Shown piece after piece: positions 2,407 through 41,351 of a stretch of DNA of 60,432 nucleotides (position 1 is the stretch's first letter; every line of letters begins with the position of its first letter). Source of the DNA: an uncultured Bacilli bacterium (GTDB lineage: Bacteria > Bacillota_I > Bacilli_A > RFN20 > CAG-449). Made by a program: the position numbers and the translations under genes. The stretch is taken from NCBI GenBank assembly GCA_944332225.1, contig CALVJO010000005.1, positions 1-60,432 of the forward strand, given 5' to 3'. The notes beneath the pieces are model-generated. The model had not been told where the DNA came from. It worked only from the letters and a program-made list of their open reading frames with translations, and searched no databases.

Positions 2407-3222
2407 ATGAATGAAAGATTAAAAGGAGATTTATATGTTGAGCTAAGCATAAAATCTATCGATAAATTTACAAGCAATTTTAATTCAAAGCTCAGCTCAA
2501 AATATCATAGTCTAATCTATATTTTAGATGGCATAGCCACGATTGTGATCGATGGAAAAGAAACATTCGCGGATAAATTTGATTTATTGTATTTTAATAA
2601 GCGTCAAAAAATTGAGATACAGCCAGGTCATTACACCATCTTACAAATTTTATTTGATGGAACCGCGGTTAATGAATTGATTTTTGAATCATCTTTCAAT
2701 CAATTTAAAATCATAAATGTCATCGAGGGAAGTCAATTATCATATGACCTATATAGGCTAGGCCACCTCGCGGATAATAATTCGCATCCTAATTTATTAG
2801 CCTTAGGTCTTCTTTTTGAGGTGTTCTATGAATTAACGAAAGATTCTTTAAACACTAAAGATGAGAAGGTTTATGGAAAACAATATCATATTAAACAGGC
2901 TAAAAGATTCATGAATTTAAACTATCAAAAAAATATCTCAATCAATGATATAGCTAGATCGATAGGAGTTAGCCCTAATTATCTCGCGGATCTCTTTAGA
3001 ACTTTAGATGAAGTTTCTCCAAAGCAATATTTAACTTCTTTAAGGATGGAAAAAGCTAAAGAACTTCTCTTAACTAGAAGATATAAAATTAAAGATGTCG
3101 CGAAGATGGTAGGATATGATAATCAGCTTCATTTCTCTTCAGAATTTAAAAAGTATTCTTCCTTTACCCCGCGAGATTATGTGATTTTTACGATTCAAAA
3201 TTATAACAAAGATAAAAATTAA
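2407..3222 (+). CDS. AraC-family transcriptional regulator
   Basis: A 271-residue DNA-binding regulator. The N-terminal 150 residues look like a cupin-type sensor (YHSLIYILDGIATIVIDGKE), which usually binds a sugar or small ligand. The C-terminal 100 residues hold two helix-turn-helix motifs of the AraC type: ISINDIARSIGVSPNYLADLF and YKIKDVAKMVGYDNQLHFSSEFKKY, ending in the conserved FTPRDYV. It is the last gene of the plus-strand run starting at 380 and its stop overlaps the stop of the convergent helicase-like gene by 4 nt. No sugar-transport genes are adjacent, so the regulon is not apparent. Confidence 0.9.
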   Translation: MNERLKGDLYVELSIKSIDKFTSNFNSKLSSKYHSLIYILDGIATIVIDGKETFADKFDLLYFNKRQKIEIQPGHYTILQILFDGTAVNELIFESSFNQFKIINVIEGSQLSYDLYRLGHLADNNSHPNLLALGLLFEVFYELTKDSLNTKDEKVYGKQYHIKQAKRFMNLNYQKNISINDIARSIGVSPNYLADLFRTLDEVSPKQYLTSLRMEKAKELLLTRRYKIKDVAKMVGYDNQLHFSSEFKKYSSFTPRDYVIFTIQNYNKDKN

Positions 3223-6200
3223 TTATTAAATAACTTGCCGTCTTTATAGATGATTTTTTGAGCGTCTATCATCGTTGATATGATGTTTTGAATTCTAAAA
3301 TATTGGCTATGGTTCATCTTTTTGTAGCCTAGAGAAACTAAGATTAATTTAATCATCTCATCCTGAGATAAAGGCTTAAAGATGGTGATCTGCTTAATTC
3401 CTGAAGAAATTTCTTCATTAGATACATTATCAAGCTCTCTTAAGGTTCCTTTAGGAGCCTTTTTAAAATGAATCTCTTTATTTTCTAAGAAGATGAAATT
3501 ATGTTCTATTGATATTATATTATCTTGCTCTAAAGACGAGACTAAGGAAGGATAATCATCTTTGAAGAGAAGATTGATTTCCTCAGTTTTAACAGGAGAT
3601 ACTTTCTCTAATACTTCTTTAAAGATTTCTAGCTTAGTTTTATTATCTTTATCCTTAATTTCGATTAAGGCTTGAGATGGAGTAAGATAATCAGAGAAAA
3701 TGATATCTATTAAAGGTTTTTTAACTTTTTTAGTTTTTATTTTTCTTTCTTGGACGGTATTTTTAATAATGAATTCTTTTAATTTTTGATATTGATTTTC
3801 TTCATCGAGGAAATAGAAGAAAGGAATTATATGATAATAGGCAAATTCTAGAGAATTTTCGATATAATCTTTGCCTTTTCCAAGAGAATTAATCGCTGAT
3901 TCAAGAGAGTTATAGGAGAGATGATCCACGATGATCGCAGTTGGACGTTTTGAGGAAGGAACCTTGACTAAAATATCAATAGAGCCTTTAGAAACTTGAT
4001 AATTGGTGATTAAATTAAATCCATCCTCTGTCAAGTGATTAGCTAAAGCTTTAATGAAGGTCTTATCAAAGTTGTTTGGAGATAAAACTTCCTCTAGATA
4101 CGCTTTAGAGCTGTAGAAAACATTATCATAAACTTTATAGATGTTAGATAAGAAACATTCACCTTGATATGGTAAAAGAGAATCAAAGTAATCTCTAGAT
4201 GGATCTTTATCGATGATTATGGTTTGAGAACCCCTAAATAAGGCTAAGATTCCTTCTAAGGTAGATTGATTTTTATCGACTAAAGAGAGAACTAAATCAA
4301 AGCTAGCTTCGTAAGATGAAAACATCTTAGATACATCTTTGATATTCGCTAAGAAAAGAGGCTTATTATAAGAGATAATTAAAGGAATGGATTTAATGAT
4401 TTCCTTATAAGGTAAGATTTTTATCTTATCGTCTAAAGCTGATTTAATATAAGGAAATTCAATGTTCTTTAAAGATAGTCCGATTTGCTTTTGACGGGAA
4501 ACTAGCTGAGATTGAATGATATCTTGAATGATTTCTCTTCTTTCCTTATCGAACTCTTCATAGGTAGCTATCTGATGGTTAAATCCATCTAAAGAGAAGG
4601 TTGACGAAAGCACATTAGAGTCATTTTCCTGATGAAGCTTTTGATAATATAAAGCTTTTAAGAAGGCCCCTGGATAACTTTCCTTTTGAGGTAGTTTCAA
4701 TAATTCATCCGCGAGATTAGGGATTAATTTATTTAATTTATTCGATGATAAATAGAAATCTAAATAATCATTAATCGAAGAGAAGTTTTTCGACATGTTA
4801 ATGATTCTAGTTTCAATAGATATTAAATTTAAATTGAAAAAGTTTAATTTATCTTCAAAGAAGAACTCTTTTAAATAATTTAAGGCTTCTAAGATATGAT
4901 TAAAGGCGATTTGGCATTGCTTTCTAGAATCGACGAATACTGTCATTGTCTCTTCATTAAAGTAATCTAAATAAGATGCATCATAATTAAACCCTTTAAA
5001 GTTTAAATAACGAACATTTTGGAAGAATTTATCGATAGTTTCGTAATCATCGATAAATTGATCGATATCATAATGATTATCTTTAATATAGTAAGAAAGA
5101 TCCTTGTTCTCATTTTCAAAGTTTTTAATATTTTCTTCTTCTTTATGGTAATCGTTTAGCGATGAAGCGACATCTAAGAGAATGCCTTCATCAATTTTGA
5201 TGGTTCGATCAAAGAATCCTCGATATTTTTTTATTAATTTTCCTTTAGAAAGAGTTTTTAAATCTTCGTTTAATGCTTTTTGATCTATAGATAGAACATT
5301 TTCTCCATAAAGGGAGATTAGTTTAGTTTTTGTTCCATTATATTCATCAATCGATTTATTAATTTTCTCTAATTCTAAAGATAGAGACTCTTTAATATTT
5401 TCTTTGATTATCGAAAGAGGAAGCTTTTTAATCATCTCAACGGTAGAAAGGATATTTAAAATAGCCTTCATATCTTTCATGTCATTTGGGAAAGGAATAT
5501 GATAGACCTTCTTTAAATTAGAATAGGCTTTTTTAAAAGGTTGGAATTCTCCTTCTAAAGAGATGATTTTATCTTTTAATTCAATATAACCTTCCTGAGT
5601 TAAATCAAGTCTTTTAAATCCGTAGAAAGGATGATCTAAATAATGACATTTTAATTTATCCGCGGTTTCTACAAATGATTTAATCGCTTTTAAATATCCA
5701 TCGATCTGCTCATTAGAAATATTAACAATATTAGGGATGGTAATATTTATTAAAGGTAGGCCATCTAAATTATAATAGTTAAATAATAATTGATTGATGG
5801 ATAAATTAAGAGGTGGATTAGCCATCCTTAAAGTGTTGATCAATCGAGAGTAGTTATTTTTAACTTGATAGAAGTTATCAACAGAAGAATCGATTTGGCT
5901 AGGGCTGAACCGTTCTTTAAAATTATCTAAAAGAGTCAAAGATGAAAGTAGTTTCTTCTTGTCGCTTGAAGAAGATAAATCGATAACATATCTATTTAAT
6001 GAAGATTCATTTAATATAGAAAGAATCTCTTCTCGATCATTATCATCTTGATAGGTTAATAAAATGTTTTGATTATTTAATAGATAATGAAGCAAGATGT
6101 TATTAAGCAAGTGATCTCTAGTCTCTTTTGAGGAAGGTTTAATAGCTAGATTTTCTCTTAAGGATAATCTTTTCAAGATTTTATATTCATCATTTTCTAA

Positions 6201-6983
6201 GTTTAATAAAGATAGGAAAGAGTTATTTAATCTAGCCCCTTTGACTTTTTTAAAATTATAAAATTCCGAGTTAAAATAAGAGATTTGCTTGATGATATCT
6301 AAAGAAGATAATTCATCTTGATGCTTAATTAAATCGTTAAGATAATAATATTTATCAACATCTAAACTAGCAAAAAAGCATCCGTTATTGACTGAGAAAT
6401 GTAATGATTTAACTCTTGTTGCTACGTAAGTTAGATATTCATATAAAGAAAAATTATTTTCTAAAGGGTAGGAAATATCTAAATTTAAGGTGTTTTGAAA
6501 ATAAGAAATCAAGCATTCATTAAGATATAATTCATGATTGATATTAGATATTTGATAATGATCAGTTTCATTGATGTACTCTAGTTTAATAGGCATTAAG
6601 ACTAAAGGAGCTGAGATGATTTTCATGTTTTTATCAATGAAATAATCGATTAAGCCAAAAGTTAAATATAATTTATTGTCCTTAATCAATAAGGAAAGCT
6701 TTTTATTTTGAACTTGATAATCCTCCGCGGTGTAAAAACCAATTTTATTTTCTTGAGAATTGATCTGTTCCTTCTCTAAAAGAGCTTGATACAGGGTTTT
6801 ATTAGTTAATTCAAGATTTTCAATCTCAAAAGTTTTACCTTCCATCAATAAATTAAAGATTGAGGTATAATCAGAGGTTGCTAGTCTTAAAGGAGAAGGA
6901 TTGTTATAAAAAAAATCTAAAAGGTTAGATTTAGTTAATTGTTCCTTTAACTTTCGTTGATAAATTTCAATTTTGTTATTCAT
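3219..6983 (-). CDS. degenerate DUF4011-type SF1 helicase with lost ATPase motifs
   Basis: This 1254-residue protein keeps the layout of large DUF4011/DUF3320 SF1 helicases. There is an N-terminal RNRLL-like segment (LTKSNLLDFF, residues 16-25), the family hallmark APLVLMPIKLE (125-135), a RecA-like core, a C-terminal Vsr/restriction-like fold (about 960-1050, with GSIDILV) and a final winged-helix segment. Manual alignment places PSSKETRD (283-290) where GPPGTGKS should be, SLVDKNQ (about 899-905) where the DEASQ box should be, and IIIDKDPSR where VVGDxxQLPP should be. ATP hydrolysis is therefore not expected. The frame is intact over 3.7 kb, so the protein is probably kept for a non-catalytic role. 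It is shorter than most active relatives. I cannot name its function. Confidence 0.7.
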   Translation of the reverse strand: MNNKIEIYQRKLKEQLTKSNLLDFFYNNPSPLRLATSDYTSIFNLLMEGKTFEIENLELTNKTLYQALLEKEQINSQENKIGFYTAEDYQVQNKKLSLLIKDNKLYLTFGLIDYFIDKNMKIISAPLVLMPIKLEYINETDHYQISNINHELYLNECLISYFQNTLNLDISYPLENNFSLYEYLTYVATRVKSLHFSVNNGCFFASLDVDKYYYLNDLIKHQDELSSLDIIKQISYFNSEFYNFKKVKGARLNNSFLSLLNLENDEYKILKRLSLRENLAIKPSSKETRDHLLNNILLHYLLNNQNILLTYQDDNDREEILSILNESSLNRYVIDLSSSSDKKKLLSSLTLLDNFKERFSPSQIDSSVDNFYQVKNNYSRLINTLRMANPPLNLSINQLLFNYYNLDGLPLINITIPNIVNISNEQIDGYLKAIKSFVETADKLKCHYLDHPFYGFKRLDLTQEGYIELKDKIISLEGEFQPFKKAYSNLKKVYHIPFPNDMKDMKAILNILSTVEMIKKLPLSIIKENIKESLSLELEKINKSIDEYNGTKTKLISLYGENVLSIDQKALNEDLKTLSKGKLIKKYRGFFDRTIKIDEGILLDVASSLNDYHKEEENIKNFENENKDLSYYIKDNHYDIDQFIDDYETIDKFFQNVRYLNFKGFNYDASYLDYFNEETMTVFVDSRKQCQIAFNHILEALNYLKEFFFEDKLNFFNLNLISIETRIINMSKNFSSINDYLDFYLSSNKLNKLIPNLADELLKLPQKESYPGAFLKALYYQKLHQENDSNVLSSTFSLDGFNHQIATYEEFDKERREIIQDIIQSQLVSRQKQIGLSLKNIEFPYIKSALDDKIKILPYKEIIKSIPLIISYNKPLFLANIKDVSKMFSSYEASFDLVLSLVDKNQSTLEGILALFRGSQTIIIDKDPSRDYFDSLLPYQGECFLSNIYKVYDNVFYSSKAYLEEVLSPNNFDKTFIKALANHLTEDGFNLITNYQVSKGSIDILVKVPSSKRPTAIIVDHLSYNSLESAINSLGKGKDYIENSLEFAYYHIIPFFYFLDEENQYQKLKEFIIKNTVQERKIKTKKVKKPLIDIIFSDYLTPSQALIEIKDKDNKTKLEIFKEVLEKVSPVKTEEINLLFKDDYPSLVSSLEQDNIISIEHNFIFLENKEIHFKKAPKGTLRELDNVSNEEISSGIKQITIFKPLSQDEMIKLILVSLGYKKMNHSQYFRIQNIISTMIDAQKIIYKDGKLFNN

Positions 6984-29552: not shown

Positions 29553-29786
29553 TTATCCCTCCAATTCCACTTCTACAAACTTAGCTTCACTTTTTCTTAA
29601 AGTTAGGCTATAGTTTCTGATTTTAACTTCTAAAGGGTCATTTAACGGAGCCTTTTTAACTAAAACAAGCTTTGCTCCAGGAGTAACTCCCATATCAAAA
29701 AGCCTCCTTCTTATTTTCCCTTCACCATAAATCTTTTTAATAGTACCTTGTTCTCCAATTTCAAATTCATCTAATAATTTAATCAT
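29553..29786 (-). CDS. feoA: FeoA domain protein (second copy)
   Basis: A 77-residue SH3-like FeoA protein that should bind or regulate FeoB on the cytosolic side. The family pattern is seen as GEQGTIKKIYG, RRRLFDMGVTPGAKLVLVKKAPLNDPLEVKIRNYSL, with the LxxMGxxPG turn and the final LRKSEA. It starts right after the first feoA (no gap) and ends 1 nt before feoB. Compared with the first copy it is closer to the standard consensus. Confidence 0.93.
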   Translation of the reverse strand: MIKLLDEFEIGEQGTIKKIYGEGKIRRRLFDMGVTPGAKLVLVKKAPLNDPLEVKIRNYSLTLRKSEAKFVEVELEG

Positions 29787-30014
29787 TTAAAATCCTTCTT
29801 TCGTTTTAACGTAGATTTTACTAGCTATATCCTTACTAAGAGCCAGTCTTCCATTTTTAATTAGCAAGATGACATTTCCCTTAGATGATTCTAAAAGTGT
29901 AAGCTGCTGGTCAGGAATGATCCCTAAATTCTCTAGATGCTTCTTAAGCTTCCCTTCAGATTGCACTTTGATAATAGTTAGAGGAACACCGATAGGTGCA
30001 AATATTAATGGCAT
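29787..30014 (-). CDS. feoA: FeoA domain protein (first copy)
   Basis: A 75-residue FeoA-type SH3-like protein and the first gene of the operon. The pattern KKHLENLGIIPDQQLTLLESSKGNVILLIKNGRLALSKDIA fits the family, but it is more divergent than the second copy. Two feoA genes before feoB are common in Firmicutes. An AGG ribosome site (GGGAGGTATAT) lies before the ATG and overlaps the edge of the proximal operator region, so repressor binding would block transcription near its start. Confidence 0.9.
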   Translation of the reverse strand: MPLIFAPIGVPLTIIKVQSEGKLKKHLENLGIIPDQQLTLLESSKGNVILLIKNGRLALSKDIASKIYVKTKEGF

Positions 30015-30025
30015 ATATACCTCCC

Positions 30026-30041
30026 GTTAGTTATAACTAAC
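30026..30041 (-). promoter_or_regulatory. operator-like perfect palindrome, feo operon (proximal)
   Basis: GTTAGTTATAACTAAC is a perfect 16-bp palindrome that begins 3 nt downstream of the -10 box, so a bound protein would block initiation. The form GTTAG-N6-CTAAC is consistent with an iron- or manganese-dependent DtxR/MntR-family repressor. Confidence 0.75.
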
Positions 30042-30044
30042 ATC

Positions 30045-30072
30045 ATTATATTTAACGGAAATGCCTTGTCAA
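30045..30072 (-). promoter_or_regulatory. consensus promoter of the feo operon
   Basis: Read on the minus strand, TTGACA (30072-30067) and TATAAT (30050-30045) are both perfect hexamers 16 nt apart. This is the best promoter in the window and explains why tight repression would be needed. Confidence 0.88.
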
Positions 30073-30232: not shown

Positions 30233-32101
30233 TTATTTGCTTCTTAAATAATGGTAGTAACCATCTTTCTCTTCGATAAATTTAAAGCCTTTAATTTTAT
30301 ATTTATTACCATTAGCTAAAAGAAAAATATCTTTCAAACTTGAAATCTTTTTATAAATATTATGACTGTTTAAAACAGATCTTGTCTCCATTCCTAACAA
30401 ATCTTTAGATGCTGACGGGGATATTTTAATAAAGATGAAAGTAATTATTTTCATAAAAAATAATTTTAGCTTAGATGGTTTATAATTTGAAGAAACAGCT
30501 AAAGGGACGAATGTTTGCTCTAATAAAGAAGAAACTTGCTTAAAAGTTAATTTTGCTTTTTTAGAATAATGTTTTAAGGCTTTTCTTTGCAATATATTAG
30601 GATTATCTAAAACTAATTTAGATAATGACAAAGTAAAATTAAGATTATTTGATTCTTGTTCCTCTTCTAACATCTTTTCATAAATTCTTTTTTCAAGCGC
30701 GTTGTAATCATTAAAGATGATTGCTTCATATGATTTAGATAAATAAATTGAATCTATTTGTTTGTTAGTATTTAGAAAATTTAAATCCAGACTCTTACCA
30801 TCTAAAGGAAAGATAATTTCCTTTAAAGATGGACAATTTTCAATTAAGCATCTAATCGGTTTATTTACAATGCAGGAAGAATAATCAGCCTTAATTAAAT
30901 TAGGTAGGTTTTCTAGCAGGATAAAGCAATCTTCGTTTCCTTCATCATTTTTAAAATAATTAGATGGAAAGATGATGTTTTCAATTTTAGAATTTTCAAA
31001 ATGATCTAAATATCCATCAAAATTATCATTTAATATGAGAGTTTTTAAATTTTCTTTATTTGAGCATCCAACAACATTGACATCAGGTAAAAATAGCCAA
31101 TTATAATTCTGATCAAAATAATTATTGTTCATCTTAGAAATAGTGTTGTTAACATATATTGTTTTAAGCTTTGGCTTATTAAAATCACCGATGAAATCGG
31201 ATTCAAGATTAGAAACATTTCTTAAATCTAGAATTCTAAGATTCTTGCATCCTAAAAAGACATTTGAATAGATATGTTTACAAGATTTAGGAATATTAAT
31301 TTCCTTTAAAGAAAAGCAGTTAAGAAAAGTATAGCCATTAGAATCAGATTCTATCTTTTCATGCCCACCTATAGATTCTATAGTCTCAGGAAGATAGATA
31401 GTTTCTAAAAAGGTCATATTAGCAAAAGCCATAGGGCCAAGAGCAATAACTTTATATTTTTTATCCTCAATAGTTAAATAAGGAGGAACATTTATTTTAT
31501 AAGCAAAAGGATCTTTATAACCGCTTATGATGAGAGAATCTTCAATAATTTTAACCATGAAAGGATTCTCTTTTTTCATCGCGCGTAAAGCTTTTATTTT
31601 TTCTTCATAAGATGATGCGCCTAGAAGATAGGTTATTTCATTTGCAAATACTTTTTTATATAGCTTCTTTGCTTCGTTTGGTAAAGATAAAGATTCGCTT
31701 AATATTTCCCCTGATACTGTTAAATTATTAATCTTTCCGTAATTAATCGAAAAATATGATTTATGAGAAAGGTCTACTCTTTTCATAAGTCTATAAAGGA
31801 AAGGATCATTCAATGAATCTTCGTTTAAATATATAATTGCTCCTATACAATCATAATCATCAATTTTTTCTAAAATGAAATCTTGATAATCTTTGCTAGA
31901 GTCAATCTTTTTATCGTAGAAAACAGAAATATTTTCTGATAGATAGATTAAAACATCAATCAAGGCTTCCTTATATAAAGAGGTAGGATAGTAAATTAAA
32001 TAATATCCTTGATCTATAAGAGGCTCAGGAATCAGCTTTTTTATATCATCATTAATTTCTTTAGATTGTAAAATTTGGTTAATCTTTTCTTTAGTATCCA
32101 T
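30233..32101 (-). CDS. LRR protein with degenerate TIR domain
   Basis: A 622-residue intracellular protein (no signal peptide), last gene of the TIR-LRR operon. Residues 1-34 match the N-terminal extension of the upstream paralogue (MDTKEKINQIL versus MDTLQDKINFIL). The TIR-like domain (about 34-150) has YLIYYPTS where the paralogue has YFISYSHK, and Leu105 stands where the catalytic Glu should be, so NADase activity is not expected. BspA-like LRR_5 repeats follow (MAFANMTFLETIYLPETIESIG and others), then a C-terminal tail with a hydrophobic stretch (KLFFMKIITFIFIKI). It begins 1 nt after the paralogue. It may be a regulator or decoy for the active TIRs; that is inference. Confidence 0.72.
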   Translation of the reverse strand: MDTKEKINQILQSKEINDDIKKLIPEPLIDQGYYLIYYPTSLYKEALIDVLIYLSENISVFYDKKIDSSKDYQDFILEKIDDYDCIGAIIYLNEDSLNDPFLYRLMKRVDLSHKSYFSINYGKINNLTVSGEILSESLSLPNEAKKLYKKVFANEITYLLGASSYEEKIKALRAMKKENPFMVKIIEDSLIISGYKDPFAYKINVPPYLTIEDKKYKVIALGPMAFANMTFLETIYLPETIESIGGHEKIESDSNGYTFLNCFSLKEINIPKSCKHIYSNVFLGCKNLRILDLRNVSNLESDFIGDFNKPKLKTIYVNNTISKMNNNYFDQNYNWLFLPDVNVVGCSNKENLKTLILNDNFDGYLDHFENSKIENIIFPSNYFKNDEGNEDCFILLENLPNLIKADYSSCIVNKPIRCLIENCPSLKEIIFPLDGKSLDLNFLNTNKQIDSIYLSKSYEAIIFNDYNALEKRIYEKMLEEEQESNNLNFTLSLSKLVLDNPNILQRKALKHYSKKAKLTFKQVSSLLEQTFVPLAVSSNYKPSKLKLFFMKIITFIFIKISPSASKDLLGMETRSVLNSHNIYKKISSLKDIFLLANGNKYKIKGFKFIEEKDGYYHYLRSK

Positions 32102-32102
32102 A

Positions 32103-33767
32103 TTATTTATTCTCTATTCTTATAAATTTATGATAGTTAGTTAAATCAGATTCAACCCGTTTAAAAGCTGAACTAACTTTGATTTTTTGGCTTGTTAAAT
32201 AGATAGTATCTAACGTAGGAATAACTTCATCAATATAGGTTAGTCTCTTGCTGTTTTTAATTTTATTTTCAATAACTATAAGTTTCTTTGTATTAATAAT
32301 TGCTGTTTTAAGATTTAGACAATCATTAAAAGAACTAGATGACAAATGAATCTCTTTAGGATGCTTTAGTTCAATTTTTTGAAGGCTGCTACAACCATAA
32401 AAAGCATCTTTATCTATCAAAGAAACATCATTTAATACTAAGCTTTCAAGGCTCTTTAAATTTGAAAATGCCTCGGTTTCTATAGTTAGATTTTTTGCTT
32501 CGTCGATAATGTTTTTTATCTTTATACAATTTTTAAAGGCTTGGGGATAGATGCATTTTAATCCATTTGGTAAATTGATTGATTCTAAACTTTTACAATT
32601 ATAGAACGCGCGATATCTAATGGAATAGCAGTTATCAGGTATGGTGAAATTAATCAAATTTTGGCAGTTAGCTAGAGCCTCATCTTGAATTATTTCTAAA
32701 CTGTTAACGATAATAGTTTTTAAATTAGGAGAATCTTTAAAAAGAAAGAAAGCATCGTCCCCTTTTTCAAATTCAATAGTTTCAAGATATTCACTTTTAC
32801 CGATTAGGGATACATTATTAGGCACGAATAGATATTTTAAGTTGATGCAGTTATTAAACGCGGACATTTCTATTCTCCCGTTTTCCGTCTTAGCTAGATT
32901 TACTTTAGTTAAATTAACGCAGTTATAGAAGGCGTAGTCTTGAATGTATTTCCAGTTTATAGGCAAGCTAATTTCTTCAAGAAAACGAAAATTAGCAAAC
33001 GAACCAACTCCAATTCCTGAAACAGGTTTTGTCTCACCTTTAATTTTAATATTTTGAGGTATAGAAACCTTTTTGATTGATATATCTCGACAATAAGATA
33101 ATAAATATTCATTATTTTCATCGCCCATAGAATCATCTTTTGAGTATTTAAATAATTTTGGAGAAGGAATATTTTTGATTTGCTCCTTAATCTCATCAAG
33201 CGAAGTATTTGAAATCTCCAAAAGGACTTTTGATTTAATTGATAATATTGATTTTAAAAATATTTTTTCATCTAAAGAAATATTTAAAGAATTATATATT
33301 TCATCGGTGACCTCAGCTTCTTTTAAAAGCTTTGGGGAGATATCTTTATTATTAGAAAAGAAGCTATCGATAACTATAAAAAATGGTTCAATATCAGGTA
33401 ATGAGATGATTAATGATGACTTTTTATATTTTGAGGATAAATTGTATTCCTTATTTAAGGAATCAGAATGCAAGCAGTTTTTACTTACAAAATAAATTAT
33501 TCCTTTGCACGAAAAAGAATAAACCTTCTTTTTTACAAATTTAATCCAACTTTCTCCGTTTTCTAAGCCCCTGTCATACCAAAGATTAATTCCTGATTCG
33601 AGAAGCTTTAAGATGTAAGGAAAGACCACTTTATAATCTTTATGAGAATAGGAAATAAAATAATAGCCTTCATCGCTGTTAGGATCTGGCATGATTCCTT
33701 GCTTTTGGACTTCTTCTAATGATTTAGAATTTAGAATGAAATTAATTTTATCTTGTAATGTATCCAT
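32103..33767 (-). CDS. TIR-LRR protein
   Basis: A 554-residue protein without signal peptide. After a 35-residue extension comes a TIR domain (YFISYSHKDYKVVFPYILKLL, INLWYDRGLENGESW, KGIIYFVSKNCLHSDSLNKEY); Glu107 aligns with the catalytic Glu of NAD-cleaving TIRs. Leucine-rich repeats of the BspA/LRR_5 type fill about 245-500, with units such as YAFYNCVNLTKVNLA, RAFYNCKSLESINLP and DAFYGCSSLQKIELK. LRR_5 repeats are mostly known from surface proteins, but here they should be cytosolic. It lies 33 nt after the GNAT gene and 1 nt before its paralogue. A role in sensing and NAD depletion is inference from TIR biology. Confidence 0.82.
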   Translation of the reverse strand: MDTLQDKINFILNSKSLEEVQKQGIMPDPNSDEGYYFISYSHKDYKVVFPYILKLLESGINLWYDRGLENGESWIKFVKKKVYSFSCKGIIYFVSKNCLHSDSLNKEYNLSSKYKKSSLIISLPDIEPFFIVIDSFFSNNKDISPKLLKEAEVTDEIYNSLNISLDEKIFLKSILSIKSKVLLEISNTSLDEIKEQIKNIPSPKLFKYSKDDSMGDENNEYLLSYCRDISIKKVSIPQNIKIKGETKPVSGIGVGSFANFRFLEEISLPINWKYIQDYAFYNCVNLTKVNLAKTENGRIEMSAFNNCINLKYLFVPNNVSLIGKSEYLETIEFEKGDDAFFLFKDSPNLKTIIVNSLEIIQDEALANCQNLINFTIPDNCYSIRYRAFYNCKSLESINLPNGLKCIYPQAFKNCIKIKNIIDEAKNLTIETEAFSNLKSLESLVLNDVSLIDKDAFYGCSSLQKIELKHPKEIHLSSSSFNDCLNLKTAIINTKKLIVIENKIKNSKRLTYIDEVIPTLDTIYLTSQKIKVSSAFKRVESDLTNYHKFIRIENK

Positions 33768-33799
33768 CTTTTTAAGTAATTATATCCCATATTTTTTAG

Positions 33800-34897
33800 T
33801 TAAAATAAGTCACTTTTATTAAAAGAGAAAAAGAAATGAAGAGAATTTAAATCATATAAAGATTCTAATGATAAGATATAACGATTAAATTCCATCATAG
33901 AAGCAAATGTTTTAATTGGATTTTCGCTTGTTTTAGAAATATCGATAGAATCATTATTTATCTTTATTAGAAGTCGTTCATCACCTATTTGATAAACATA
34001 AGTTTTGTTTTCAAAAGTCATGATATTTTTATTGATTGAGAAGAGAAATTTTAAAAATTCAATCTCATCATAGACTTTAATTAATAAATCATCTTGAAGA
34101 GAGATATTCTCACTTAATAATGAAAATTTATAAAATAAATCACGATCTAAAGAAGAGACTGATATTGTTAATTCTTTATTAAAATAATTAAATATAGATT
34201 TAATAATTAAAGGTAATTTATCTATATCAAATATAACAAATTCATCAATATTATCTAAATGTTCTTTTTTGGTGAAGTAGCCATAGACTTTATCATTTTG
34301 CTTTAAAATATAAGGTTTTCTTCTCCCACCTATTAATGATTTATAGAAATCATCTTTAGTTTTAAGCTTATATAAATCCTGCTTTAAATATTGAGAATAT
34401 AAAGCTTCAATATCATCATCTGATTCCTGTAATTCAAGGCATGAAATCTCGGTTTTTAAAGGTAATCTTTTATTTAGAATCGTGAAATTATAATCATAAC
34501 CAACTTTTTCATAACCAAAGTGATTATATCTTGTTCTATCTCCAGTTAAGATAGAGAAAATAACCTTCTGAGAAACATTCTCAGAGTTAATATTTTTCAT
34601 CAATAAAGACATATAGCCCCGATTTTGATATTCTTTTAAAGTCGCGATTGAGCCAACAAAAGAAACTAGATAAGGTTTATCTAGATTAATCTCTTTTAAA
34701 ATATTCCCTCCGACTGAGACCATTTTTTGATCTTCAATGATGCAGAAGTGAGATGGAGAATAGTCAATTTTAGAACTATAGATTTTAGCCATATTGATTC
34801 TAAAATCAAATTCAGGATATCTTACTTCTTTAAACGCGGAGTTCGCGCAGGAGAGGATTTGATTTAGTTCTCCTTTTTTACATTTTCTTATGTTCAT
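33800..34897 (-). CDS. GNAT-family N-acetyltransferase
   Basis: About 365 residues. The N-terminal half is a GNAT fold: IRKCKKGELNQILSCANSAF, then FVGSIATLKEYQNRGYMSLLM with the QxxGxx acetyl-CoA loop (QNRGYM), then GDRTRYNHFGYEKVG, as in Eis-like acetyltransferases. The C-terminal half is a sterol-carrier-like or second GNAT-like region without clear motifs. ATG 34897 is chosen over 34912 because GAGGA lies 8 nt before it, inside the end of the TIR-STAND-LRR gene, which it overlaps by 20 nt. It may modify a partner or a small molecule in the same system; the target is unknown. Confidence 0.75.
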   Translation of the reverse strand: MNIRKCKKGELNQILSCANSAFKEVRYPEFDFRINMAKIYSSKIDYSPSHFCIIEDQKMVSVGGNILKEINLDKPYLVSFVGSIATLKEYQNRGYMSLLMKNINSENVSQKVIFSILTGDRTRYNHFGYEKVGYDYNFTILNKRLPLKTEISCLELQESDDDIEALYSQYLKQDLYKLKTKDDFYKSLIGGRRKPYILKQNDKVYGYFTKKEHLDNIDEFVIFDIDKLPLIIKSIFNYFNKELTISVSSLDRDLFYKFSLLSENISLQDDLLIKVYDEIEFLKFLFSINKNIMTFENKTYVYQIGDERLLIKINNDSIDISKTSENPIKTFASMMEFNRYILSLESLYDLNSLHFFFSFNKSDLF

Positions 34898-37800
34898 TAT
34901 AGGCGTCCTCATATATCTTTAATAATTTTTTACTTCCGCTGATGAAGCCATCAGGGCTTCTAATAATAGTTACTTCATGATTGAATAACTCATTTATTTT
35001 AGGTAAATCTCTTAAAATAGCAAACATTTTAACATGCGTGTTATCTACAAGATCACTTATGTATTTTTTAAGCTCATCGTCTTGAAAATTATTAAGCTTA
35101 TTGTATTCATCTAATCCAATTAAGCAAATGTTATAATCATCTTTTTCGATTCGAACCTGGGAAAGAATCTCTTTATTATTCCTAAATAAGTTTATCTTCT
35201 TATAAAGAACGTCATCATCTACTTTCTTTAAGATGGTAAATTCGCTGCTTTTTTCAATTAAACTTAAATCAATTTTAGTTTTATTCTTGAATTCAAAGGA
35301 TAAGCTTTTAACGTTTTGTTTATTAAACTTGGTATGGAAATCGTTAATGGTTAATAGCTTAATATCATCAAATTGATCGATATATTTAATAGTTAAACCT
35401 GGATAGGAAGATAAGAATAAATAATTTTTATAAGTGATTTTAGTTAAATCTAATTCCCCAAAATCGATATTTTGAATTGATTCCATGTCAGCAAAAGCGT
35501 AGGAACCGATCTCTTTAATTGAAGAATTTAATTTAACGTTATTGATAAATTGACATGTAGAAAGAGAGTCTCCTCCAATTATTGAGACCATCGGATCGAT
35601 AACGATGTCTCCTTTGATTCCAGGAGGCATTCTAAATAAGGTAATCGATGATGAATCTTTAGAATACAATATTCCATCTTTCGTGAAGTATTTAGGATTG
35701 TTTTCAATAAAATACTTCGTTAATATTGGGCAAAAATCTGTGAAGTCAGATGAGATATCTTCAATTTCATCCGGTAAGATTAATTCTTCAATATTTTGAT
35801 TATAGGCTAATGAATGATCTTTAATTTCCTTTATTTCTTTAGGCAAGATCACTCTTCCTTTTAAAGCAGGGACTCCAATATTTAAAATTAATTTATTGTT
35901 TGGACCTTTTGAACAAAGCAGCTGATTATTTAATAATGAGACAAAGTTTTCATTATTTTTAGCTATCTTTATTTCTTTTAATTCATTACAGAATCTAAAT
36001 AATGGATGGTTAAAAACTTTATAGTTATTTCCTATATAGATAGTTTCTAAATTTGGACAGGAGATAAAACAAAATGCTGAAATCTTTAATTCATCCGTTG
36101 AGGAAATTAAATATGCTTTCTTTAATCGAGTCATCTTAGAAAATGACGCGTGAGATATATATTCACATGAAGCAGGGATTTTAATTATTTCTATATTCTC
36201 ACATGAGGCAAAAGCCATCTCAGGAATATAATATAGCTGTAAATTAGTTAAAATTTCATTTTGAATTTCTTCTTCTCGATATAGAGATAATTTATAAATT
36301 AATAAAGTTAAATTTGGATAAGTATTTTGATTTATTAAATTTTTATCAAAGTTTTGTTGGTTACCATTAATTAAGTCAAAAAATAAATCATCTTTGCTTA
36401 ATAGTTTTAATAAAGAATATTTTTCTAAGATATTTGAAGAAAAGTCATCTAATTCGTTTAATTTATCTACCCAATTTATTTTTTTATCTACGATAGAATT
36501 TATTTCTTCTTTAACATATTTATAGAGAAGATAAGTTTTAATTTCGTCGACTATATAGTATTCGTCTCCATCGTTTTGTAAGACTCCATAGGTCACTAGA
36601 AGATCTTTAAATAATAAGTTAGATATTTGTCCATATTCGCTTTTATACGCGCATTTACCGAGGGTTTTAAACTCTTCTAATAATTCTTTTTTGATTAAAG
36701 AGCTGATATCTAAATATTTATTATTAAATAAGGATGAAATTTGATTAATTAAAGATATTTCTCCTCCTGATTCTAAAAGAAGGGAGAAGATTTCTAATTC
36801 ATTTTGAACTAATATTTCTTTTAAGAAAGATTCATTGTTATTAAGTAATTTAATTAACAAATTAATCTTAGAATAAGATGAGAAAAATTTAAAAAACCTA
36901 TCATCTTCCGTTAGATTATTGATTTGATTAATGATATTTGGTGATACTTTACAAAATTTTAAATAGGCGAGAATTTTATTTTTATTAAGAGATAATATCT
37001 CCGCGTATGTTTCTTCCATTTTCTTAGAAATATCTAGGGCTAAAGACTTATTTACATATCTTTTTCTTGAGAAAAATACGATTTCAAAACTAGATTTTAA
37101 ATCGTCTATCTCATTTAAAATTATCTGTTTAAGATTACTAGCTACATAATCAAAATTATCTAATAACAAACATATTTTTTGATGATAGGAAGAATAGGTA
37201 GCTAAATCATCAAAGTTAAATCCGATGGTGTTAGGAAAGTTTAATGAAAAAGCGTTTTGAATAAGATTTTCGTCACTTGAGGATAATGAAGCAATCTTGC
37301 TTAAATCAATATAGAGAGAATATTGATTATTCAAATAATAATTAATTAAAAGATATGAGGTTCCTGAACCTTCTGATCCAAAGATATTAATTGGGAAATT
37401 ATGATTGATTAATTTTTCTAATGACGATGAATTCTCATCTGAAAGATAAACTTGATCCTTATCATCTTTTAAATCAGGTAAAGACGAAGTCATAATCTCT
37501 TTTTTAAAGAAGAAAGATTTAAAATAGATATGATTGATTATTAAGCATGATGAGGTGACTTGATATAGATAATAATTATTTTGATTAATTGATTTAATTA
37601 AGATATTTAAAAAGTATTTAAACCCGTTAATTAAATCATATGTTTCATAATAAATTTTATTAATATCAGAAGAATTATTATAGATATCATTTAATTTTTC
37701 GTTGATGTATATAACGGTTTGATTGATAAATTCTTGATTATCTTTAGTTTTATAATGAGTTAAAAGATGGTCTTTTAAAACTGAATTAACATTAAGAGAA

Positions 37801-38522
37801 GAAGGAAGAGAAAGTAAATAAGAATCACTTCGATATCCCATCAAATCGTTTAAGATATTTTTTATAAATATAGAATTAGCTTCTAAGTTTAAGTTATTTG
37901 AAAAAGGCTCATCGTTAATAAAGGCAAAACTTTTCGTTCTTGGATCGATAAATAAGGTCGAAAAATCAGCTTTAGATGATAGATATTCATTTTGATCTTG
38001 CTTAGCTAAAAGATAAGAAAGCAAATTGATAAATAAAGATAGAAAATTTTCATAGCTAGGAACTAGAGATCCTTTTCCAATATAATTTAAAAATGGAATT
38101 CCATTATTTTCATTAACATCAGAAAAAGTAGTTAATTTACAAGACGGAAAATCATCATGAGAAGTGACGATTTCTATAAACTCATCATAGCTCATAGCCA
38201 CTTGAATCTTAGAAAATTTCTCAGCGAGGCTGAGATTATGAGTTAACTTATCTAAATCGATAACATAGATTTTTTTCTTACGATCAGTTGCATCATCATA
38301 TTCTTTTTGACAATATTCAGAATAGCGATAGTTATTGCTGACAAAAGCGATGAAAATCGTGCATGAAGCAATCGCGCAACGGATGTGCGCGTCCCAAAAG
38401 TCTCCAGATTTTAAATCTTTTTTATCATAAAAATATAGATATCTCTTTTCTTTTAAATAGTTCACATATGGTTCGACTAATAGATAGTCTTTATGTGAGT
38501 AAGATATAAATATAGACCCCAT
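34878..38522 (-). CDS. TIR-STAND NTPase-LRR protein (NLR-like)
   Basis: A 1214-residue cytosolic protein. Residues 1-95 are a TIR domain (SIFISYSHKDYLLVEPYV, FYDKKDLKSGDFWD, SNNYRYSEYCQKEY) with the likely catalytic Glu74. Residues 130-345 are unassigned. A STAND/NACHT-like NTPase starts near 360: the P-loop is GSEGSGTS (382-389), with Thr388 replacing the usual Lys; Walker B is CLLLDNFD (451-458) and the sensor strand is IVFFSRKR (481-488). A helical region follows to about 750, then BspA-like LRRs (MAFASCENIEIIKIP, SYAFADMESIQNIDF), then a 150-residue tail. The order is that of plant TIR-NB-LRR receptors. It heads an operon with a GNAT and two TIR-LRR proteins. An immune-sensor role is inferred. 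Confidence 0.78.
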   Translation of the reverse strand: MGSIFISYSHKDYLLVEPYVNYLKEKRYLYFYDKKDLKSGDFWDAHIRCAIASCTIFIAFVSNNYRYSEYCQKEYDDATDRKKKIYVIDLDKLTHNLSLAEKFSKIQVAMSYDEFIEIVTSHDDFPSCKLTTFSDVNENNGIPFLNYIGKGSLVPSYENFLSLFINLLSYLLAKQDQNEYLSSKADFSTLFIDPRTKSFAFINDEPFSNNLNLEANSIFIKNILNDLMGYRSDSYLLSLPSSLNVNSVLKDHLLTHYKTKDNQEFINQTVIYINEKLNDIYNNSSDINKIYYETYDLINGFKYFLNILIKSINQNNYYLYQVTSSCLIINHIYFKSFFFKKEIMTSSLPDLKDDKDQVYLSDENSSSLEKLINHNFPINIFGSEGSGTSYLLINYYLNNQYSLYIDLSKIASLSSSDENLIQNAFSLNFPNTIGFNFDDLATYSSYHQKICLLLDNFDYVASNLKQIILNEIDDLKSSFEIVFFSRKRYVNKSLALDISKKMEETYAEILSLNKNKILAYLKFCKVSPNIINQINNLTEDDRFFKFFSSYSKINLLIKLLNNNESFLKEILVQNELEIFSLLLESGGEISLINQISSLFNNKYLDISSLIKKELLEEFKTLGKCAYKSEYGQISNLLFKDLLVTYGVLQNDGDEYYIVDEIKTYLLYKYVKEEINSIVDKKINWVDKLNELDDFSSNILEKYSLLKLLSKDDLFFDLINGNQQNFDKNLINQNTYPNLTLLIYKLSLYREEEIQNEILTNLQLYYIPEMAFASCENIEIIKIPASCEYISHASFSKMTRLKKAYLISSTDELKISAFCFISCPNLETIYIGNNYKVFNHPLFRFCNELKEIKIAKNNENFVSLLNNQLLCSKGPNNKLILNIGVPALKGRVILPKEIKEIKDHSLAYNQNIEELILPDEIEDISSDFTDFCPILTKYFIENNPKYFTKDGILYSKDSSSITLFRMPPGIKGDIVIDPMVSIIGGDSLSTCQFINNVKLNSSIKEIGSYAFADMESIQNIDFGELDLTKITYKNYLFLSSYPGLTIKYIDQFDDIKLLTINDFHTKFNKQNVKSLSFEFKNKTKIDLSLIEKSSEFTILKKVDDDVLYKKINLFRNNKEILSQVRIEKDDYNICLIGLDEYNKLNNFQDDELKKYISDLVDNTHVKMFAILRDLPKINELFNHEVTIIRSPDGFISGSKKLLKIYEDAYNEHKKM

Positions 38523-38584: not shown

Positions 38585-39301
38585 TTATTCTTTGCTGACT
38601 GAATAAGGATCAACAAACTGAAAAGTTAAACAGTCTGAATACTTTTTAGCAATTTCAATTTTGCTATCATCATCGATAGTCCAAGATAAAGTTAATCTTT
38701 TATTTATTGATTTTTGATATTTAGGCTTCTTTAAAAGCTCGACATCTAAGTCAACACCTTCAAAAAAGTGACGGAAAATATATGGATATTCATTGCTTCC
38801 AACTAGAAGCAAACGATTGATAGATAATGATTTAACATACAATAAACATTGAGGATAGAAAGAGATGATTAAATAGTTTTTTGCGTCCTTAATATCTTTT
38901 AGCTCTTCTTTTAAGCGATTAGCTAAAGCTTTATAGTTTTGTTTATAAGGCTTAAGTTCAATAACTAAAGGAACCTTTTCTGAGACTAAAGATAGAACCT
39001 CTTGTAAGGTTGGAACCGTCTCACCATTTAATAATCGATAATTATCTTTAATTTCTTGTAAGGTTAAATTTTCAATTATCCCCTCTTTAGATGTAGTTCT
39101 CTTTAATGAAGCATCATGCATCACGATGAGATTATTATCTTTAGAAAGATGAACATCTAATTCGATGGCTAAATTATGATTTAGAGCATTTTTAAAGGCT
39201 TCCATCGAATTTTCAGTGATTTTTTCATTATGTAATCCTCGATGGCAAACACCTTTAAAAATGGATGGATTAATCCTCTTTAATACTTTTTCTTTATTCA
39301 T
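38585..39301 (-). CDS. glycerophosphodiester phosphodiesterase
   Basis: About 238 residues of the GDPD TIM-barrel family, which cleaves glycerophosphodiesters to glycerol 3-phosphate and an alcohol. The active-site motifs are seen: HRGLHNEKITENSMEAF (His-Arg and Glu-Asn), ELDVHLSKDNNLIVMHD (metal ligands Glu, Asp, and the His) and ELKPYK. No signal peptide is present, so it should be cytosolic. ATG 39301 is used; a TTG start 21 nt upstream would overlap the transporter gene. It lies 4 nt after the transporter, so the pair may handle uptake and use of a substrate. Confidence 0.88.
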   Translation of the reverse strand: MNKEKVLKRINPSIFKGVCHRGLHNEKITENSMEAFKNALNHNLAIELDVHLSKDNNLIVMHDASLKRTTSKEGIIENLTLQEIKDNYRLLNGETVPTLQEVLSLVSEKVPLVIELKPYKQNYKALANRLKEELKDIKDAKNYLIISFYPQCLLYVKSLSINRLLLVGSNEYPYIFRHFFEGVDLDVELLKKPKYQKSINKRLTLSWTIDDDSKIEIAKKYSDCLTFQFVDPYSVSKE

Positions 39302-39305
39302 ATGA

Positions 39306-40703
39306 TTAATCGTTATCCCCAAGAGCTTCTAATCCAGTTTTAAAAGTAGTCTTAACATTTTTAACGTTTTTAATAAACAAGAAGATGATCAATGATATAA
39401 CTAAGCAAACTAAAGCGTAGTAAGGTAAGACTCCAAAGTCAAAATTAGGAATAAGTAATATTGAACCTAATAAGATAGGTGTAACCGTTTGAGCCGCCAT
39501 ACTAGAAGCATAATAGTATCCGGTGAATTTACCAATTTTCTTTGAGCTGCAAAGCTCGACTACCATCGGATAAGAATTGACGTGAACTAAACTCATACCA
39601 AATCCTTTTAAGAACCAAATGATATATAAATAAACAGGAAATACTCCAGAATTATAAGCAAATTCAGGCAAGGTGAAGTTAAGGATCGCCCATAATCCAT
39701 AGGCCATGAAAGTTAATCCTAAGCCGGAGACCACGGTCCATTTTCTAGTCAATTTAGAGGCGATTAAGCCACCTATTGCAAATCCGATTACTGAACCAAC
39801 TCCTCCCATGATGGTATTTATCATAGTTGAAGATGATGATGCGTTAAGATGATAAACAGTATAATTAGTCATAAATGTTGCGATTCCGTTATCGGCCATA
39901 AACCAGAAGAATTCCGCGACTAAAATAAGAATTAACATTATTTTATTGTTTTTAGATAAAGGTTTATCATCATCAGCTTTCTCTTCTAATTCTGAAAGCT
40001 TTTCACCTAGTTCCATCTCTTCTTTTACTTCTTCAGCAATCTTATTTTCTTTGATGGTAAAGAATAAAACTAAGCAGGAGATAACCATCAATACCGAGGC
40101 TAGTAAGAATGGAACCTCAATAACCCAAATATTATTAAAAGCCCAAGAGCCTTCTTTAGATAGATAGTCAGTTAATACGAAGAATACTCCAACGATGGTA
40201 GCAAAGAAACCTCCGATGTAACCCATGATGTTAATGATTCCATTAGCCTTACTTCTTAAAGGTTTAGGAGTCATATCTGGCATCAAGCTAACTGCAGGAT
40301 TACGATACATCATCATAAATATGACTACGAGGGCCATAAATATTATCATTCCAACTATGTTGTTATAATGGAAAAACACCGGGATAAATGGAAATAAAAC
40401 TGCGGTTACAAAGGTACCAACTAAGATGTATGGCATTCTTTTACCGATAGGAGTTTTAGTCTTATCCGATAAAGAACCAAATATAGGTAATAATATTAAC
40501 GCGGCTAGATTATCAAGAGCCATGATGATTCCAACTAAATATTGAACTTCTTTAGGATCCTCAATTGAAAAAGCTCTTGCGAATTGTTCGCTTAGAAAGG
40601 TAGGACACCAAGAATCGTAAACCTGCCATAATAGTAAGATGCCAAAGAACGCAAATCCGATTATGAATGTTCTCTTTAAATTAAGTTTCAAGGTGTTCTC
40701 CAT
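39306..40703 (-). CDS. MFS transporter, GPH/SLC45-like sugar or glycoside symporter
   Basis: 465 residues with about 12 membrane helices. The first loop has GSLSDKTKTPIGKRMPYI, the characteristic GPH-like motif (sDrtxxrwGrRrpyi), and the second half has TNYTVYHLNAS and ASKLTRKW. A charged central loop (EEVKEEMELGEKLSELEEKADDDKP) splits the two halves. This points to a glycoside or sugar-type cation symporter of the SLC45-like branch. It lies between a HAD phosphatase and a glycerophosphodiesterase on the same strand with gaps of 9 and 4 nt. The substrate is not certain. AGGAGGAAAAT precedes the start. Confidence 0.85.
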   Translation of the reverse strand: MENTLKLNLKRTFIIGFAFFGILLLWQVYDSWCPTFLSEQFARAFSIEDPKEVQYLVGIIMALDNLAALILLPIFGSLSDKTKTPIGKRMPYILVGTFVTAVLFPFIPVFFHYNNIVGMIIFMALVVIFMMMYRNPAVSLMPDMTPKPLRSKANGIINIMGYIGGFFATIVGVFFVLTDYLSKEGSWAFNNIWVIEVPFLLASVLMVISCLVLFFTIKENKIAEEVKEEMELGEKLSELEEKADDDKPLSKNNKIMLILILVAEFFWFMADNGIATFMTNYTVYHLNASSSSTMINTIMGGVGSVIGFAIGGLIASKLTRKWTVVSGLGLTFMAYGLWAILNFTLPEFAYNSGVFPVYLYIIWFLKGFGMSLVHVNSYPMVVELCSSKKIGKFTGYYYASSMAAQTVTPILLGSILLIPNFDFGVLPYYALVCLVISLIIFLFIKNVKNVKTTFKTGLEALGDND

Positions 40704-40712
40704 ATTTTCCTC

Positions 40713-41351
40713 CTAGAGTAATTGATTTATTTTAGTTAAAAGTTCATCTAAAGAGTTAATGAAAGGAACATCATCTTTAATAACTCCAAAGCCGTATCTA
40801 GCATGGATGAACTCAACTTTAGCCTTTTGACATTCTAAATAATCTTTTAAAGTATCTCCGATATAGATTACTTTATCTAAATTATATTTTTCTTTAATTA
40901 ATAAGATATTTTCGTTTTTATCTTTTTTAGTATCTCCCGCGCAGAGGTGATCCTTAAATAAGTGATGTAACTTATAATTATCTAAATAGTTTTCAATATA
41001 TCCTTTGTCTGAATTAGACACGATAAATAAAAGGAATTGTTCTTTTAATTTAGTTAATACATTTATCTCATTTGGATATAGTCTTCCCGGGTGATTCTTT
41101 AAATAACCGATTTCATCTTTAAAACAAAGATTAAAATATTGTTGACCGATTGATGAATCAACATCAGGGAAAGCTAATTTTACGGTTTCTTCAGGGGTTA
41201 AACCCATATATGATCTAATTTGATCGTTATTAAAACGATACGGTAGACCAATGTTATTCATAGTGAGATTATAGCTATCTCGTATTTGCCCGATGGCGTC
41301 CCATAACGTGCCATCTAAATCAAAGATAATACCAACCTTATCCTGTTTCAT
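40713..41351 (-). CDS. HAD-superfamily phosphatase (phosphoglycolate phosphatase-like)
   Basis: A 212-residue haloacid dehalogenase-type phosphatase. Motif I is IIFDLDGTLWDA (nucleophile and acid Asp), motif II is LFIVSNSDKGY, the Lys of motif III is around AGDTKKDKNEN, and motif IV is VIYIGDTLKDYLECQKA. The cap is the small helical type of the Gph/PGMB group. Substrates of this group range from phosphoglycolate to sugar phosphates and cannot be set from sequence. It heads the minus-strand run that includes the transporter and the GDPD. Confidence 0.88.
   Translation of the reverse strand: MKQDKVGIIFDLDGTLWDAIGQIRDSYNLTMNNIGLPYRFNNDQIRSYMGLTPEETVKLAFPDVDSSIGQQYFNLCFKDEIGYLKNHPGRLYPNEINVLTKLKEQFLLFIVSNSDKGYIENYLDNYKLHHLFKDHLCAGDTKKDKNENILLIKEKYNLDKVIYIGDTLKDYLECQKAKVEFIHARYGFGVIKDDVPFINSLDELLTKINQLL

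What the first reader, a model, noticed from the sequence alone, without database searches (positions are those of the whole stretch)
30233..38522. TIR-STAND-LRR protein in an operon with a GNAT enzyme and two TIR-LRR paralogues
Four minus-strand genes (34878-38522, 33800-34897, 32103-33767, 30233-32101) are packed with overlaps or gaps of 1-33 nt. The first has the order TIR, STAND NTPase, LRR, as in plant TIR-NB-LRR immune receptors; the last two have a TIR plus BspA-type LRRs and share an N-terminal extension, so they arose by duplication. None has a signal peptide, so the LRRs should face the cytosol. Bacterial STAND proteins (Avs, bNACHT) and TIR NADases are known phage-defence parts, so a sensor/effector system is the natural reading. 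The GNAT enzyme between them is an unexplained extra. The combination is unknown to me.
Basis: partly seen in the sequence, partly recalled or inferred. Interest (0 to 1): 0.85.

Follow-up and report, generated by a model that had tools for sequence, protein, structure and literature searches.

The report
TIR–pseudoSTAND–LRR receptor with acetyltransferase partner
A bacterium from an uncultured lineage of Bacilli carries an immune-receptor-like protein (TIR enzyme, dead ATPase switch, repeat array and a metabolic-kinase-like tail) that is always encoded next to its own acetyltransferase, a pairing that looks like an undescribed variant of the NAD-destroying defence receptors shared by bacteria and plants.

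Summary
The conserved unit is two genes: the 1,214-aa protein (TSL) and the GNAT gene. They are adjacent, head to tail, in 4 of 4 genomes (two genera, three contexts), and the GNAT occurs in exactly the same 4 of 18 family genomes as TSL. The two TIR-LRR genes (TL1, TL2) accompany the pair only here. The core lacks the Walker A lysine in all four homologues, so it is probably a pseudo-NTPase. The TIR keeps S7, D33, S68 and E74, matching the published active site of the NADase Cat1; TL1 keeps them too, TL2 has lost three of the four. The GNAT is an Eis-superfamily relative with catalytic Tyr and C-terminal Phe conserved. In two genomes the pair lies beside a resolvase and a DNA methyltransferase. 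Best reading: an NAD-degrading anti-invader receptor with a dedicated acetyltransferase regulator. The defence role and the GNAT's role are inferred. New variant of a known kind.

The parts
34878..38522 (-). TSL: 1,214-aa TIR-linker-pseudoSTAND-LRR_5-HprK_N-like protein
   Evidence: full-length homologues in G001, G002, G012 (36/36/30% identity)
38244..38522 (-). TIR domain, residues 1-93; S7, D33, S68, E74 invariant
   Evidence: Pfam TIR_2 56.9 bits; aligned without gaps over these residues with Cat1; Cat1 active-site residues from PMC12162218
37413..38243 (-). Linker, residues 94-370, most divergent segment (69% aa identity between G001 and G002); mostly helical
37023..37412 (-). AAA+/STAND-like core, residues 371-500
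   Evidence: AF2 model pLDDT 61; Foldseek top hits ORC5, Avs4, NLRP7, RFC, E 2e-3 to 1e-2
37356..37379 (-). Degenerate Walker A GSEGSGTS (residues 382-389): three glycines kept, Lys replaced by T/A/A/E in the four homologues
   Evidence: alignment A1
37146..37172 (-). Walker B-like LLLDNFDY (about residues 451-459), D455 and D458 invariant
   Evidence: alignment A1
35373..36287 (-). BspA-type LRR_5 array, about residues 746-1050
   Evidence: Pfam LRR_5 E 2.8e-16
34881..35297 (-). C-terminal HPr kinase N-terminal-like domain, residues 1076-1214
   Evidence: Pfam Hpr_kinase_N 24.9 bits (cut-off 24) in the G012 homologue, 18 bits in G001/G002, none in the window copy itself; AF2 pLDDT 81, pTM 0.78; Foldseek 1knx HPr kinase prob 0.96, TM 0.54, the only hit with probability above 0.51
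33800..34897 (-). Eis-superfamily GNAT acetyltransferase; conserved partner of TSL; Tyr124 and C-terminal Phe365 conserved
   Evidence: Pfam Acetyltransf_9; alignment A2; hhalign to Eis-type proteins over 300 columns, E 1.4e-10; same 4 of 18 genomes as TSL
32103..33767 (-). TL1: TIR-LRR_5 protein with the four catalytic TIR residues; not part of the conserved core
30233..32101 (-). TL2: diverged TL1 paralogue; TIR residues S>Y, S>D, E>L, so predicted inactive; LRR_5

Best explanation
TSL+GNAT is a two-gene, probably anti-invader (phage or plasmid) module of the prokaryotic NLR-like kind. TSL is a cytosolic receptor held inactive as a monomer or small assembly. The LRR, the fast-evolving linker and/or the HprK_N-like tail recognise an invader protein or a disturbed host protein. 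Recognition drives oligomerisation without an ATP switch, because the STAND-like core lacks the Walker A lysine and acts as a scaffold. The clustered N-terminal TIR domains then cleave NAD+, causing growth arrest or abortive infection, or making a signal. The Eis-like acetyltransferase, whose gene is translationally coupled, most likely acetylates TSL or TSL's target to set the activation threshold. In the window genome the module has recruited a local TIR-LRR gene pair, one active and one pseudo-TIR, probably extra sensor or modulator subunits. Shown: domain order, catalytic residues, Walker A loss, conserved pairing, purifying selection. Inferred: NADase activity, oligomerisation, defence function, the acetylation target.
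For: TIR active-site residues S7, D33, S68, E74 are invariant in all four TSLs and align without gaps to the Cat1 active site. An AAA+/STAND fold is indicated, with Avs4 and NLRP7 among the top hits. TSL and GNAT are adjacent in 4/4 genomes across two genera and three contexts, with overlapping or abutting reading frames, and co-occur in exactly the same 4 of 18 family genomes. dN/dS between G001 and G002 is 0.087 (TSL) and 0.064 (GNAT), so both proteins are maintained, while dN is higher (0.085, 0.060) than in the sampled neighbours (0.008-0.040). In G001 and G002 the pair is followed by a resolvase and a type II-like DNA methyltransferase, and in G001 a type I specificity subunit lies within 5 kb. 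Distribution is patchy (4 of 279 order genomes). TIR fusions to inactive STANDs are described in other conflict systems (PMC7159879).
Against: No member has been tested. No PADLOC system model is satisfied. The pair was not found in the phage, plasmid or IMG/VR collections, and the immediate window neighbours (FeoAB, GDPD-MFS-HAD) are not defence genes. The STAND model is of low confidence. An ATP-independent switch is unusual. Only four homologues exist, two of them close relatives, so conservation rests on about three independent lineages.
Confidence: 0.5

Rival explanations
1. The GNAT is the effector (or a second effector): TSL recognises the invader, its TIR product or assembly activates the Eis-like enzyme, which acetylates a cellular or invader component.
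For: The GNAT is the only constant partner; its catalytic Tyr124 and C-terminal Phe are conserved; GNAT domains are listed among effectors in related conflict systems (PMC7159879).
Against: Active-site residues of the TIR are invariant too, so TSL already carries an effector; solo relatives of this GNAT exist without any TSL, which argues for an ordinary enzyme recruited as modifier; Eis-type enzymes are not known as toxins (my knowledge).
Confidence: 0.2
2. The unit is a metabolic or stress switch, not defence: the HprK_N-like tail senses a carbon-metabolism signal or the HPr pathway, and the TIR lowers NAD+ to slow growth.
For: HprK_N-like tail supported by sequence and fold; the host has its own HPr kinase; the window, G001 and G002 copies adjoin a HAD-MFS-GDPD cluster, and in G012 an unrelated MFS_2 transporter lies two genes away.
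Against: Patchy presence (4 of 18 family genomes), fast divergence and changing neighbours are not typical of a core metabolic switch; the tail lacks the kinase domain.
Confidence: 0.15
3. The four genes form one obligatory system, with TL1 and TL2 as required subunits.
For: Gaps of 32 and 1 nt and same strand.
Against: No TL1/TL2 counterpart lies next to TSL+GNAT in G001, G002 and G012, while TL1-type TIR-LRR proteins occur in other families of the order that lack TSL.
Confidence: 0.1
4. The LRR proteins are surface or host-interaction proteins of a gut symbiont and the TIR is a mimic aimed at host signalling.
For: BspA-type LRRs are usually surface proteins (my knowledge); the family has very large LRR proteins (up to an 8,190-aa open frame).
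Against: The TIR begins at residue 2 of TSL with no room for a signal peptide, the core is of an intracellular NLR type, the gene is coupled to an acetyl-CoA-using enzyme, and TIR NADase residues are intact.
Confidence: 0.05

Closest known systems
Bacterial NLRs and NLR-related proteins (bNACHT, Avs) and plant TIR-NB-LRR receptors
   Same: N-terminal effector, central AAA+/STAND-type core, C-terminal LRR; Avs4 (8dgf) is the third-ranked Foldseek match of the core
   Different: Walker A lysine missing in every homologue; no NACHT/NB-ARC profile match; BspA-type LRR; additional HprK_N-like tail; constant GNAT neighbour
iSTAND proteins of MoxR-vWA ternary conflict systems (PMC7159879)
   Same: Catalytically inactive STAND core, with TIR domains sometimes fused at the N-terminus
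   Different: No MoxR or vWA gene seen beside TSL; C-terminal LRR and HprK_N-like tail; GNAT partner
Cat1, CRISPR-associated TIR NADase (PMC12162218)
   Same: Closest TIR of solved structure; same active-site residues at the same positions
   Different: Cat1 is switched by a CARF domain and cA4; TSL has neither CARF nor CRISPR neighbours
Eis-type acetyltransferases (type V GNATs; PMC8556138)
   Same: Acetyltransf_9 N-terminal GNAT, alignable over 300 columns, Tyr general acid and C-terminal Phe conserved
   Different: No SCP2_2 (PF13530) match; shorter (365 aa); the TSL-linked subfamily is restricted to four genomes
HPr kinase/phosphorylase N-terminal domain (PF02603)
   Same: Fold and weak sequence match
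   Different: No kinase domain; sits at the end of an NLR-like protein
Solo TIR-LRR_5 proteins of this bacterial order
   Same: TL1 shares N-terminal extension, TIR and LRR_5
   Different: Those genomes have no TSL; their immediate neighbours were only partly read

Membership tests
TIR-STAND-LRR (NLR) receptors | N-terminal TIR with NADase residues | tested here: met
TIR-STAND-LRR (NLR) receptors | STAND/NACHT/NB-ARC NTPase fold | tested here: inconclusive
   Foldseek top hits are AAA+/STAND but at E 2e-3 or worse on a pLDDT 61 model; no profile match
TIR-STAND-LRR (NLR) receptors | Functional Walker A (GxxxxGK[ST]) | tested here: not met
   GSEGSGTS, GNYGCGAS (two), GDVGCGER in the four homologues
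TIR-STAND-LRR (NLR) receptors | C-terminal LRR array | tested here: met
   LRR_5 in 4 of 4; BspA type
TIR-STAND-LRR (NLR) receptors | Ligand-induced oligomerisation activating the TIR | not testable with these tools
   needs protein
bNACHT / Avs defence systems | Match to PADLOC or NACHT models | tested here: not met
iSTAND ternary systems | Inactive STAND core | tested here: inconclusive
   Walker A lost, fold weakly supported
iSTAND ternary systems | MoxR and vWA partner genes | tested here: not met
   none recognised among the neighbours read or Pfam-scanned at the window, G001, G002 and G012 loci; not every neighbour was scanned
Thoeris | ThsB-type TIR plus adjacent ThsA | tested here: not met
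   only weak TIR cross-matches to ThsB models and no ThsA-like neighbour; the genome-wide STALD search was uninformative because no control rang
Eis acetyltransferases | Acetyltransf_9 GNAT with Tyr general acid and C-terminal Phe carboxylate | tested here: met
Eis acetyltransferases | C-terminal SCP2-like domain (PF13530) | tested here: not met
   no match in the four proteins nor in the window genome
HPr kinase N-terminal domain | Profile match above curated cut-off, same fold | tested here: inconclusive
   met in the G012 homologue (24.9 bits against 24), 18 bits in G001/G002, no match in the window copy; hhalign with the family's own HprKs not significant; fold match 1knx prob 0.96
Solo TIR-LRR_5 family (TL1) | N-terminal extension, TIR with S/D/S/E, LRR_5 | tested here: met
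   (TL2 fails the catalytic residues)

The most novel reading that the evidence does not exclude
A bacterial NLR with an integrated decoy: the HprK_N-like tail mimics the host's own HPr kinase, so that an invader protein acting on carbon-catabolite control triggers the receptor; the core switches without nucleotide, and a dedicated Eis-like acetyltransferase sets or relays the response. This would be a bacterial parallel of plant NLRs with integrated decoys.
Probability: 0.1. Interest if true: 0.88.

Novelty: new variant of a known kind. Interest (0 to 1): 0.62.

Why it matters
If true, it adds to bacterial immunity a TIR receptor of NLR layout that works without an ATP switch, carries a metabolic-enzyme-like domain as a possible bait, and has a constant acetyltransferase partner. 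It would make testable whether protein acetylation controls TIR NADases in bacteria and whether bacteria use integrated decoys as plants do. It also shows that NLR-like proteins of uncultured Bacilli are missed by current NACHT, NB-ARC and PADLOC models.

Tried and rejected
A single-sequence scan of genome contigs with TSL found nothing; the alignment-based scan recovered the same three relatives. Phage, plasmid and IMG/VR searches found no TSL or GNAT relative, only one LRR hit in a Treponema plasmid. A search for ThsA-type STALD was uninformative because no control genome rang. A profile of the STAND segment found no PDB sequence, nor did the tail. hhalign of the tail against the family's HPr kinases was not significant, so the HprK_N assignment rests on Pfam and fold. 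Promoter- and terminator-like counts were at or below shuffled expectation, so transcript boundaries are not resolved. Considered and rejected: TL1/TL2 as part of the conserved core; the GNAT as a chance neighbour; a secreted role for TSL.

Full report
Observation. The four ORFs exist as stated. The GNAT most likely starts at 34897, since homologues begin MIIRK and the start has an SD-like sequence. Pfam gives TIR_2 and LRR_5 for TSL (34878-38522) and for TL1 (32103-33767; its TIR is just below cut-off), LRR_5 only for TL2 (30233-32101), and Acetyltransf_9 for the GNAT. No library has a STAND or NACHT match for TSL.

What is conserved. Full-length TSL homologues (30-36% identity) occur in three other genomes, two of the same genus and one of another genus of the family. 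They are MAGs titled uncultured Bacilli and Erysipelotrichaceae in genome contigs. Profile searches of 279 genomes of the order and 395 evenly sampled genomes of the class found no further TIR+STAND relative. Each TSL is followed directly by the GNAT, and the GNAT's close relatives occur in exactly the same 4 of 18 family genomes. For independent genes the chance of hitting the same four of 18 is 1 in 3,060, ignoring phylogeny. The pair lies in three contexts: downstream of GDPD in the window, divergent from the same HAD-MFS-GDPD cluster in G001/G002, and between unrelated genes in G012. More distant GNATs in two other families stand alone. TL1 and TL2 have no counterpart beside the pair elsewhere; TL1-type TIR-LRR_5 proteins with the same N-terminal extension occur in other families of the order. 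So the core is a two-gene unit and TL1/TL2 are an accretion.

TIR. The TSL TIR aligns to Cat1 without gaps through the residues that matter. The Cat1 paper lists S7, H8, N9, N10, D33, S68 and E74 of one TIR as active-site residues (PMC12162218). S7, D33, S68 and E74 are invariant at identical numbering in all four TSLs. TL1 keeps the equivalent residues; TL2 has Y, D, D, L. Active TSL and TL1 TIRs and a dead TL2 TIR are therefore predicted.

Core. The predicted fold of residues 116-760 is of low confidence (pLDDT 61), but its secondary structure around 376-500 is of the P-loop type and the top Foldseek hits are AAA+/STAND (ORC5, RFC, Avs4, NLRP7; E 2e-3 to 1e-2). The Walker A loop keeps three glycines, but the lysine is T, A, A or E in the four proteins; the Walker B-like LDNFDY and a following SxKR are invariant. 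By inspection the Walker B resembles the NACHT form. I conclude a STAND-like pseudo-NTPase: the fold step is probable, the loss of the lysine is direct.

Tail. Residues 1076-1214 form a separate domain. PF02603 (Hpr_kinase_N) scores 24.9 bits (cut-off 24) in the G012 protein and 18 in G001/G002, and nothing in the window copy. The AF2 model is good (pLDDT 81, pTM 0.78), and the only Foldseek match with probability above 0.51 is HPr kinase 1knx (0.96; E 0.11, TM 0.54). The genome has its own HPr kinase. Direct profile comparison with the family's HPr kinases was not significant, so this remains mainly a fold-level resemblance.

GNAT. With its distant relatives included, the GNAT profile aligns over 300 columns with Eis-type proteins (probability 97%, E 1.4e-10). 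Eis uses Tyr126 and the C-terminal Phe402 carboxylate (PMC8556138); the aligned Tyr124 and a terminal Phe are invariant here. The SCP2_2 profile does not match, so it is a relative, not a proven Eis. Eis acetylates protein lysines and small amines.

Selection and context. Between G001 and G002, dN/dS is 0.087 for TSL and 0.064 for GNAT, so both proteins are maintained; their dN (0.085, 0.060) and dS (about 0.95) exceed those of the sampled neighbours, and the linker 94-370 is the most divergent segment. In both genomes the pair is followed by a serine resolvase and a type II-like DNA methyltransferase, and in G001 a type I specificity subunit lies within 5 kb. This is circumstantial support for a defence role. 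The window's immediate neighbours are FeoA/FeoB and a GDPD-MFS-HAD cluster, and the nearest other candidate defence gene is about 23 kb from the operon's edge.

Mechanism. I favour recognition by LRR, linker or tail, nucleotide-independent assembly, TIR clustering and NAD+ cleavage, with the acetyltransferase as threshold-setter. Activity, assembly, target and phage defence are untested inferences. Precedents: bacterial NLRs with LRRs exist (PMC12169576), and TIR fused to inactive STAND is described in MoxR-vWA systems (PMC7159879). I found no report of a TIR-pseudoSTAND-LRR-HprK_N protein or of an Eis-like partner in the papers searched; most subscription papers are not covered.

Noticed in passing
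3219-6983: 1,254-aa DUF4011-type protein with an REase_MTES_1575-like domain, matching PADLOC candidate PDC-S37 (E 1.6e-42): a candidate defence gene about 23 kb from the operon's edge.
   Followed up: partly
L024:2411-3727 and L025:6484-7845 (G000 contigs C41 and C17): The genome's two other TIR proteins are both TIR fused to a SAM-dependent methyltransferase; a similar-looking TIR protein lies in G001 at L082:5988-7298.
   Followed up: partly
L074:4391-7180, L079:343-4932, L081:95-2701: Large TIR proteins beginning with a zinc-ribbon-like CxxC motif (MLKTITCPRCGESRLHEENG...) in other families of the order.
   Followed up: no
L069:4376-6289, L070:7976-9920, L071:1615-3558: Solo relatives of the GNAT are divergently paired with an NAD(P)H-hydrate dehydratase-like gene in three genomes of one genus.
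   Followed up: no
29553-30072: Two FeoA-like genes before FeoB, preceded by a perfect TTGACA-16-TATAAT promoter-like site just downstream of TL2.
   Followed up: no
38585-41351; L021:5485-8284; L022:2425-5224: The same HAD-MFS-GDPD cluster flanks the pair in the window and in G001/G002 but at opposite ends, suggesting an inversion or a repeated insertion site.
   Followed up: partly
L083:5425-7230: A solo TIR-LRR_5 gene directly downstream of a UvrC-like gene in G159.
   Followed up: no
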